Part shown: positions 42,001 to 64,000 of the stretch, piece after piece
How the letters are laid out: each line of letters opens with the position of its first letter
Position numbering within the stretch: position 1 is the stretch's first letter
From: Ectocarpus siliculosus
Lineage: Eukaryota; Sar; Phaeophyceae; Ectocarpales; Ectocarpaceae
Direction: 5' to 3'
NCBI GenBank assembly: GCA_000310025.1
Contig: FN649751.1
Coordinates: 6,891,540 to 6,955,539, forward strand
Length of the DNA stretch: 64,000 bases
Notes under the pieces: generated by a model
Told to the model about the DNA's origin: nothing
Database searches by the model: none
What the model saw: the letters and a program-made list of their open reading frames with translations, nothing else
Position numbers and translations under genes: made by a program

Positions 42001-42415
42001 ACCATGCACGAAGATTGGTGTGCAGGAGCTTCCACTCGTTCGGGTCACTGGTCCTTTTTCGAGAGACGGGCTAGATGGCGTAATTTTTGTGGGTGTGCTA
42101 CCCCGATAGCAGAAGAGGTTTGAGGAAGGGTCTTTGGACGTGAGCTATGTTTACCGAAGAGGTGCTTTATTGATTGCGGATATTGTGTGACGGGGTACTC
42201 GTCTGGTGGTACACAACTACAGCAGGAGATTGTGGTGGTGCGGGTGTGGGATACCACGTCCACAACAATGGTGATAAATATTTAATGAGTGCCAGATCGG
42301 TTAAACTGGGCTGGTTTTGTGGACTGTGAATCTTGTTCGCTCGATTCACTGAACAGTGTGATCTTGTTGCTTCTCCTCAGTGACCTGAGTGACGGCGATC
42401 TTTGACAACGAGACG

Positions 42416-42452
<37 letters not shown>

Positions 42453-45400
42453 CGCTGTTTGTTTGTTCGTTTGACGATGACGCAAGGTGGACCTGTCCAA
42501 GCTGAAGAAACACCGTGGAGCGAAGGATGCGCAAGGCCTGGAGGAGGTGGTGTCAGGCTACAGGAAGCAGATGCAGGAGCTGCAGGCCCAGATCAACCAG
42601 ATGACCCCCAACATGAGGGTGAGCTTTTCTCTCATTGAGTGCAACCGAAGTAAATGATGCACCTCATGCCTGCAGCTTGTACCTACGAGGGGTTGTCCGT
42701 TGTTCGCTATTTCCCCTCCATCCGCTGAGGTGTGCTGTAGAGCTTGGTAACCCTTTTGCCGGATAATTTGTAGAGGTACGCTTTTCAAGTCATTCGTCGC
42801 GGCGATGGCCTGGAATTTTTTTTTCATATTTTTTCTGCATCATTTTCTGCCCTTGGCATCGGCGCCTGGGTTCCAAGAGGTGCCAGGATCTGTGTATGAA
42901 AAATGCCGCCCTTGGGTCACATGGCGGAGGAACAGTGATTCATAGCATTTTCGAATTGGTCTGGTTCACAGCAAGCGGTGTTTGAAAGGTCAACACGCGC
43001 ACAGTGGTTCATGAACCATGTCGCCCCCCCCCCCCCCCCCCCCCCCCTTTTGAACATGCTTGCGGGGGTCTCTTTTAGGGTGTGGAAAAATTCGGCGAAC
43101 TGAGCGACCCCCCCAAGGGCTCCGGGCAAAAGTTTCAACAATCCAAACAAAAAGCCCCAAGGGCAATGGTCAAATTTAACCAGGGCAAACCGCCGAAGGG
43201 AAGAAAAAAAAAAAAAATATGAACACCCACCCCCCTGTCCCTCCCAACTGCTTTAAGAAAATAATTTCTGTGCGGCAATACCCAACACCCTGCAAAACCC
43301 TGGGATGAAAATTTCCCGCGGCGATACTTGCCAAGGTTTTTTTTTGTTTCTACCTTTTTTTGCCTCCCTGGTTTTGTTCTTTGAAACCAAATATCGTGGA
43401 AAGGAAATGTAAATTCCCCCCCCCAGGATGCATTGGTGCTCTTTATTGNNNNNNNNNNNNNNNNNNNNNNNNNNNNNNNNNNNNNNNNNNNNNNNNNNNN
43501 NNNNNNNNNNNNNNNNNNNNNNNNNNNNNNNNNNNNNNNNNNNNNNNNGGGTTTTTTTTTTTTTTTTTTTTTTTTTTCTTTTGGGGGGGGGTTTTTTTTT
43601 TTTTTTTGAGGAAGAGGAAAGGGGGACCTTTCAAAGGAGAAGAAAACCCGGGGGGGAAAGGATGGCAAAGGCCGGGGGGGGGGGGTTTCGGGTTAAAGGA
43701 AGGAAAGGGGGGGGGGGGGGGCCCAATTAAACAAGAGGACCCCCAAAAGGGGGGGGGGTTTTTTTTTTTTGGGGGGAAACGGAAGAAAAGGGGGCCCCTT
43801 ATGCCGGGGGGTGGTACTTAGGGGGGGTTGTCGGTTTTTGGTTTTTTCCCCCCCTTCGGGGGGGGGGGGGGGAAGGGGTGGGAAACCTTTTTGGGGGAAA
43901 ATTTGAAGGGGTAGGTTTTTAAAGTTTTTTGGGGGGGGGGGGGCCGGGAATTTTTTTTTTATATTTTTTTGGAATAATTTTTTGCCCTGGGAATGGGGGC
44001 CGGGGTTCAAAGGGGGGCCGGGATTTGGTTAAAAAAAAAGCCGCCCTGGGGTCAAAGGGGGGGGGAAAAGGGATTTAAAGAATTTTGAAATTGGTTGGGT
44101 TCAAAGAAAGGGGGGTTTGAAAGGTAAAAAGGGGCCAAGGGGTTTATGAACCATGTGGCCCCCCCCCCCCCCCCTCCCCCCATTCTGATCATGCTTGCGG
44201 GGGTCTCTTTCAGGCTGTGGAGAGATTCGGCGACGTGAGCGACCGCCTCAAGGCCTCGGGGCAAACGTTCGAGCAGTCCAAGCAAAACGCCGCAGGCGCA
44301 GTGCTCAAGTTCAACGAGGTCAAGCAGCGGAGGTGAGGAAGAAAGAATAGAGTATGATCACCGACCCCCGTGTCCGTCCAACGTGCTTGAGGACAGTAGT
44401 TGCTGTGCGGCAGTACCCAGCACCATGCAGACGCTTGGGATGAAAGTTTCGCGCGGCGATACTTGCCAGGCTTTTTGTTTGTTTCTACGTTTTTTTGCTT
44501 CCTTGTTTTTGTTCTTTGAAGCGAAATATCGTGGAAGGGAAGTGTAAATTCGCCCCCCAGGTATGCATTGGTGCTCTGTATTGTGTATATAATACCGTTT
44601 TTACTGCTGTCTTGAAGGCAGCAAACACTATTACCCATGCCGCCCATGGAGGGCTTGTTTCTAAGCCCACGAGGCGGAATGACTCTTTGATCTCTACATC
44701 GGGCTCTTTTGGGCTTGGAGTGCTTCTCTCAACCCAGATTCCTAGCATATCTCAGAATTTCGCGCCGTTGTGTCGGACGGGTTGGGAAGCGGGAGAAGTC
44801 GGAAGGGGAAGCGCGCACGCAGGCGCAGACCTCACCATTGGAGCCAATGAAGTGGTGACCAAAGCCACACCGCACGGGGCCGCATCAATGGGTTACTGCA
44901 TACCTTTGCTCAGCCGCGACGTATACCGTATTGGGTGGACCATGGTAAAGCACGTGGTAGAACGTCCTTTACTTGTATCGCACAACAATCTGGACACACA
45001 GTCGCCGCTGACATGTTTGTCATCTTCTTTTTTGTCCCGTGATCCAGGTACGACACCTTCATGCAGGCCTACAACCTCGTGTCCGACAACCTCAACACCA
45101 TCTACAAGGTAAAACCATGGTTTCAGGAAAAAGATTTTTTCGAGGAACGATTTTGTAATTGAGTGTGGTTCATGGGAGGCGTGAAACCGCTCAGAACGGA
45201 GAACGTCTCGAGTGCTTCCGACACATACTATGAACTAGCGGCAGCCTGACTAGTTTGCAGTCCTGATCTATCTGCGCATGAGGAGATACTGTGGCGTGTT
45301 TTGTCCTCGCACGTGAGGTGTAGCGGCTGCAATCATATCTTACAATCAGTCGAGGGACCTCTCATACTCAGTATAGCTTCAGCCTCTATCCAAAACGCAA

Positions 45401-63011: not shown

Positions 63012-64000
63012 CTGAGCACGACGAAGGTTCAGGACGTGAAGCGCGTTGAACACCTGCAAACCCTCCCGGCCCATCTGGGCCTCCCTGATTGCCAGACAGC
63101 GCCTGAACAGCTCCTCCGCCTCCTCCAGGCGCCCTGCCTCCTCAACGCATACACCAAGCGAGTACAGCGACGTGGCCACCTCCAAATCCTCTCGACCCAG
63201 TTTGGCCTCCCTGATCCCTAGACAGCGCCTGAAGAACTCCTCCGCCTCCTCCAAGCGCCCTGCCTCCTGAGCGCATCCACCAAGCGAGTACAGCGTGTTG
63301 GCCACCATCAAATCTTCTCGACCCAGCGTAGACTCCACGATCTCCAGACAGCGCCTGAAGAACTCCTCCGCCTCCTCCAGGCGCCGTGTCTCCTTTACGC
63401 ATCCACCAAGCGAGTACAGCGTATTGGCCACCTCCAAATCCTCTCGACCCAACTTGGCCTCCGTGATCGCCAGACAGCGCGTGAACAACTCCTCCGCCTC
63501 CTCCAGGTGCCCTGCCTCCTGAGCGCACTCACCAAGCGAGAACAGTGACGTGGCCACCTCCAAATCCTCTCGACCCAGCTTGGCCTCCCTGATCATCAAA
63601 CAGCGCCTGAAGAACTCCTCCGCCTCCTCCAGGCGCCTTGCCTTATGAGCGCATCCACCAAGCCAGTACAGCGTATTCGCAACCTCCAAATCCTCTCGAC
63701 CCAGCTTGGCCTCCCTGATCGCCAGACAGCGCCTGAACAGCTCACCCGCCTCCTCCAGGCGCCCTGCCTCCTGAGCGCATCTACCAAGCGAGTACAGCGA
63801 CGTGGCAACGTTCAAATCTTCTCGACCCAGCTTGGCCTCCTCGATCGCCAGACAGCGCCTGAAGAACTCCTCCGCCTCCTCTAGGCGCCCTGCCGTCCGA
63901 GCGCATCCACCAAGCGAGTACAGCGACGTGGCCACCTCCAAATCCTCTCGACCCAGTTTGGTCTCCCTGATCGCCAGACAGCGCCTGAACAGCTCATCAG
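63012..64000 (-). CDS. Kinesin-light-chain-type TPR array protein, partial at right edge
   Basis: One uninterrupted exon runs in from the window edge to a clear donor (CAG then GTAAGG at 63012/63011). It holds seven full 42-residue TPR units plus partial ones at each end. The unit pattern is LEEAEEFFRRCLAIREAKLG then REDLEVATSLYSLGGCA. Each unit is 126 bp and the DNA copies are very similar. The last unit is degenerate (VFNALHVLNLRRAQ). TPR arrays of this subtype bind proteins. In brown algae they also form the recognition part of NB-ARC-TPR immune-receptor candidates. No NB-ARC motif is visible because the N-terminal part lies beyond the window, so that role is inference only. Confidence 0.85.

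What the first reader, a model, noticed from the sequence alone, without database searches (positions are those of the whole stretch)
42430..44590. Gap inside SMC1 is a false duplication made by two low-quality contig ends
Bases 42430-43448 and 43560-44587 match as two readings of the same 1.1 kb, offset by about 1,139 bases, with a 100-N gap between. Homopolymers swell towards the gap on both sides and the SMC1 exon 24 and 25 copies nearest the gap are corrupted, as in bad read ends. The clean halves alone give an unbroken reading frame.
Basis: seen in the sequence. Interest (0 to 1): 0.75.

Follow-up and report, generated by a model that had tools for sequence, protein, structure and literature searches.

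The report
Assembly artefact: one stretch written twice
A 1-kb piece of a brown-alga chromosome gene is printed twice around an assembly gap because old sequencing reads from each side became garbled after crossing the same long run of C, so the duplication is an assembly error and not biology, and the same error recurs at most of the few similar gaps I could check.

Summary
Observation confirmed; interpretation supported, with a sharper cause. Window 42414-43448 and 43549-44583 are two readings of one 1,035-b stretch (offset 1,135, no indels, 75-76% identical) around a 100-N gap. They do not decay gradually: each is clean up to a poly-C tract (43024-43047; 44159-44181) and garbled beyond it, from opposite directions. 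The differences copy neighbouring bases: 75/75 in the left copy equal the previous base in the read direction, 159/160 in the right copy equal an adjacent base. That is the pattern expected of Sanger traces after slippage in a homopolymer. It excludes ordinary divergence of duplicates or alleles. Clean exons 42487-42618 and 44214-44333 read collinearly through SMC1; the garbled exon copies lose their splice donors. The host assembly is a Sanger-based Ectocarpus one. In samples from it, 26 of 30 poly-C(20+) tracts lie within 800 b of an N run, against 1 of 11 arbitrary loci, and 12 of 14 gaps of exactly 100 N hide overlapping flanks. The true locus should be about 1.13 kb shorter. This is a known kind of assembly fault (negative gap, homotype false duplication), not a real genomic feature.

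The parts
42414..43448 (+). left contig end: first reading of the 1,035-b stretch; clean to 43023, garbled from 43048 to 43448
43024..43047 (+). poly-C tract (24 C) at which the left reading turns bad
   Evidence: identity profile
43449..43548 (.). 100-N placeholder gap (a negative gap: the flanks overlap)
   Evidence: overlap
43549..44583 (+). right contig end: second reading of the same stretch; garbled from 43549 to about 44158, clean from about 44185
44159..44181 (+). the same poly-C tract in the second reading (C16 T C6)
44214..44333 (+). clean SMC1 exon (called exon 25), CAG acceptor and GT donor at 44334
43079..43198 (+). phantom (garbled) copy of the second exon; donor GT reads GG
43622..43753 (+). 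phantom (garbled) copy of the first exon; in-frame stop, donor lost

Best explanation
False tandem duplication made by assembly. Sanger reads entering from the left and from the right both cross one poly-C tract inside an SMC1 intron. Slippage in the tract leaves each trace as a mixture of phases, so the base caller often writes a neighbour's base where a base stands alone. Base spacing is kept, so there are no indels. The two untrimmed tails look about 25% different, so the assembler does not merge the contigs. Mate pairs still place them as overlapping neighbours, and the negative distance is written as a standard 100-N gap. Shown here: the overlap, its break at the poly-C, the neighbour-copy errors, and recurrence at other gaps. 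Inferred: slippage as the physical cause, the role of mate pairs, and the 100-N convention.
For: Ungapped dovetail. Corruption begins at the poly-C in opposite directions. Errors copy neighbours: 75/75 left (57 previous-base only, 0 next-base only; null mean 42.5, max 56) and 159/160 right (null mean 97.3, max 114); isolated bases are wrong 29% and 50% of the time, bases within runs 8% and 5.5%. A simple phase-mixture model predicts 48% (left) and 61% (right) of held-out error bases, against 0% for random substitutions. The whole genome holds only these two matches. The same pattern occurs at L033, L035, L039, L041, L074, L075, L082 and L096; overlap exceeds all controls in 11 of 14 gaps of 100 N, plus L096 by BLAST. 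Poly-C(20+) has an N run within 800 b in 26/30 loci against 1/11 arbitrary loci (p = 9e-6) and 14/30 poly-A(20+) loci (p = 0.001). Published Ectocarpus v1 to v4 assemblies rest on Sanger data, and V2 had 11,588 gaps (PMC11541908; PMC7386250).
Against: No reads, traces or quality values are available, so slippage is inferred from the error pattern. The phase model predicts only about half of the error bases and its weights do not transfer well between copies, so real trace behaviour is more complex. The right copy shows both lagging and leading neighbours. L096 has no long poly-C in the part held, so poly-C may not be the only trigger. Two sampled 100-N gaps (L048, L091) show no overlap.
Confidence: 0.97

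Rival explanations
1. A real tandem duplication of part of SMC1 that has since diverged.
For: Two copies do lie side by side in the assembly.
Against: 24% substitutions with no indel in 991 b; 234 of 235 differences copy an adjacent base; which copy is degraded switches at the poly-C; the copies end exactly at the contig ends.
Confidence: 0.01
2. Two alleles of one locus left uncollapsed (heterotype false duplication).
For: A common cause of false duplication in diploid assemblies (PMC2864568, PMC9516828).
Against: Divergence without indels and the neighbour-copy errors do not fit alleles. Published Ectocarpus Hi-C and V5 assembly work used haploid material (PMC11541908, PMC7386250).
Confidence: 0.01
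3. The same false duplication, but from ordinary quality decay at read ends, with the poly-C only coincidental.
For: L096 has the pattern without a long poly-C in the held part; some worsening towards the gap in the right copy.
Against: Abrupt onset at the poly-C on both sides here, no decay towards the gap in the left copy, and strong association of poly-C tracts with N runs across the assembly.
Confidence: 0.1

Closest known systems
Negative gaps in draft assemblies (PBJelly paper, PMC3504050)
   Same: Adjacent contigs that should overlap by mate-pair distance but do not overlap by contig sequence.
   Different: The Sanger-validated examples shown there trim 1-43 b; here the overlap is 1,035 b and the cause can be read from the error pattern.
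Homotype false duplications from sequencing error (Ko et al. 2022, PMC9516828)
   Same: Duplicates flanking a gap, caused by sequencing errors, able to add false exons.
   Different: Read depth and k-mers, which define that class, could not be measured here.
Duplicated overlapping contigs (Kelley and Salzberg 2010, PMC2864568)
   Same: Neighbouring contigs whose ends overlap.
   Different: There the cause is haplotype divergence; here it is garbled base calls.
Stutter peaks in Sanger traces (PMC10643650)
   Same: Extra signal just before or after the true peak, often from polymerase slippage at homopolymers.
   Different: Known from single traces; here it is preserved in a genome assembly.

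Membership tests
Negative gap | contig ends on either side of the gap represent the same sequence | tested here: met
   1,035-column dovetail, 0 indels, z = 37 against control maximum 5.3
Negative gap | mate-pair distance predicts overlap | not testable with these tools
   no reads held
Homotype false duplication | gap between the duplicates on one scaffold | tested here: met
   100 N at 43449-43548
Homotype false duplication | differences are sequencing errors, not alleles | tested here: met
   234 of 235 differences copy an adjacent base, no indels
Homotype false duplication | read depth below haploid level over the copies | not testable with these tools
   no reads held
Sanger slippage stutter | garbling begins after a homopolymer in the read direction and copies neighbouring bases | tested here: met
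Sanger slippage stutter | superposed peaks in the chromatogram | not testable with these tools
   no traces held
SMC1 gene | clean exons encode SMC1 sequence in frame | tested here: met
   joined clean exons align to fission-yeast Psm1 998-1066 (6yuf, E 6.6e-6); downstream exon in 46126-46740 matches SMC_N (7.5e-14), best to SMC1A among PDB chains

The most novel reading that the evidence does not exclude
In the Sanger-based Ectocarpus assemblies, 100-N gaps are mostly hidden overlaps. Long poly-C tracts (2,314 runs of 20 or more C) trigger a sizeable share of them, giving a systematic class of phantom exons, stretched introns and false tandem duplicates that can be found and removed from sequence alone.
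Probability: 0.7. Interest if true: 0.3.

Novelty: not a real feature. Interest (0 to 1): 0.2.

Why it matters
The local consequence is modest: both clean exons survive in the right order, so a spliced model can still be correct, but the intron looks 1,595 b long instead of about 460 b and two phantom exons exist. The general consequence is more useful. In a sample of 14 hundred-N gaps from this assembly, 12 hide overlaps. Exon-duplication, tandem-repeat, intron-length and poly-C statistics taken from Sanger-era Ectocarpus assemblies should exclude such flanks. The neighbour-copy signature is a read-free test for such artefacts.

Tried and rejected
Real duplication and allelic duplication were rejected on error pattern and lack of indels. 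A second genomic copy or paralogue was sought and none found (that DNA search skips very common words). A global aligner missed the L033 overlap that BLAST finds, so the ungapped end-overlap scan with control pairs was used as the fair test. The phase-mixture model was only moderately predictive on held-out data, and its weights did not transfer well between the two copies. A search for papers on Ectocarpus with false duplication found none in the held library.

Full report
WHAT IS THERE. The window contains one run of N, 43449-43548, exactly 100 bases. The sequence before it (42414-43448) and after it (43549-44583) are two readings of the same stretch at a constant offset of 1,135 bases. BLASTN aligns 991 bases at 76% identity without a single gap. 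The end-to-end overlap is 1,035 columns at 75% identity with no indel. It reaches the last base of the left contig and the first base of the right contig. Scanned against control pairs made from left and right flanks of different gaps, its score is z = 37 against a control maximum of 5.3. Searching the whole genome with the region returns only these two copies.

WHERE EACH COPY IS BAD. In the left copy the sequence is normal up to a run of 24 C (43024-43047) and garbled beyond it. In the right copy it is garbled from the gap up to the same tract (44159-44181, written C16 T C6) and normal beyond. Mean homopolymer run length is 1.35-1.39 in clean parts, 1.88 in the left tail and 3.02 in the right tail. 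In fact the change is abrupt at the poly-C, and the left tail does not worsen towards the gap.

WHAT THE ERRORS ARE. Taking the clean copy as truth on each side, 75 of 75 errors in the left tail equal the previous base in the direction of reading; 57 of them can only be the previous base and none can only be the next base. In the right tail 159 of 160 equal an adjacent base. Random substitutions with the same base make-up would give 42.5 (max 56) and 97.3 (max 114). Errors fall on isolated bases (29% and 50% wrong) and rarely within runs (8% and 5.5%). A simple mixture of lagging and leading phases predicts 48% (left) and 61% (right) of error bases in held-out halves, against none for a random-substitution control. 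This is what stutter after slippage in a homopolymer would do to base calls; stutter of this sort at homopolymers is described for Sanger traces (PMC10643650). That slippage is the physical cause is inferred, since no traces are held.

THE GENE. The clean exon 42487-42618 followed by the clean exon 44214-44333 gives one reading frame. The joined peptide aligns without a break to fission-yeast Psm1 (SMC1) 998-1066, with human SMC1A next. A downstream exon within 46126-46740 matches SMC_N, best to SMC1A among solved structures. The garbled copies 43079-43198 and 43622-43753 have lost their GT donors, and the latter has a stop in frame. The artefact therefore lies inside one apparent intron of 1,595 b, whose true length should be about 460 b, and a spliced transcript need not be disturbed.

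WHOSE GENOME. The held genome has 189.5 Mb in 492 contigs and at least 150 matches to the EsV_1_7_cys family, none in 14 control genomes, which points to Ectocarpus. Ectocarpus v1 was built from Sanger reads and later versions up to v4 re-scaffold it (PMC7386250). V2 had 11,588 gaps and a contig N50 of 33 kb, while the Nanopore-based V5 has 10 gaps in its chromosomes (PMC11541908). Which version is held here is not known.

HOW COMMON. The genome holds 2,314 runs of 20 or more C, both strands counted. Of the first 30, 26 have an N run within 800 b (25 within 500 b), against 1 of 11 arbitrary loci (p = 9e-6) and 14 of 30 poly-A(20+) loci (p = 0.001). Poly-A tracts may themselves be products of garbled ends, so they are a conservative control. 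Fourteen distinct gaps of exactly 100 N were seen, this one included. Eleven have end overlaps above every control pair, and a twelfth (L096) shows the overlap by BLAST over the 217 b of left flank held. Two (L048, L091) do not. One longer internal gap (1,262 N, L066) does not either.

WHAT IT MEANS. The best reading is a negative gap: two contig ends that overlap in reality but differ too much in called bases to be merged, laid side by side with a placeholder of 100 N. Negative gaps (PMC3504050), overlapping duplicated contigs (PMC2864568) and error-driven homotype false duplications (PMC9516828) are all described. What this case adds is a visible cause, the poly-C tract, and a signature that can be tested without reads. 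That the 100-N length is the assembler's convention for negative distances is an inference from this sample and from general knowledge, and was not found documented for this assembly.

Noticed in passing
window 63051-63995 (- strand): Tandem array of 7.5 units of 126 b (85% matches) encoding 42-aa tetratricopeptide repeats of the TPR_12/TPR_10 kind, open over the whole array.
   Followed up: partly
L096 1-217 and 607-816: The only gap met among 11 arbitrary control loci is also a 100-N gap with overlapping flanks and a homopolymer-inflated left end, without a long poly-C in the held part, so other triggers may exist.
   Followed up: partly
G000:C1:960161-960260 (L052, L053, L054): A 100-N gap with three poly-C runs of 20 or more within about 620 b and only a short (92 b) end overlap; may be a more complex version of the same fault.
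   Followed up: no
window 42418-42448: A perfect (TC)15.5 repeat just left of the clean exon; it is where the right contig's garbled tail ends, and may have hindered the join further.
   Followed up: no
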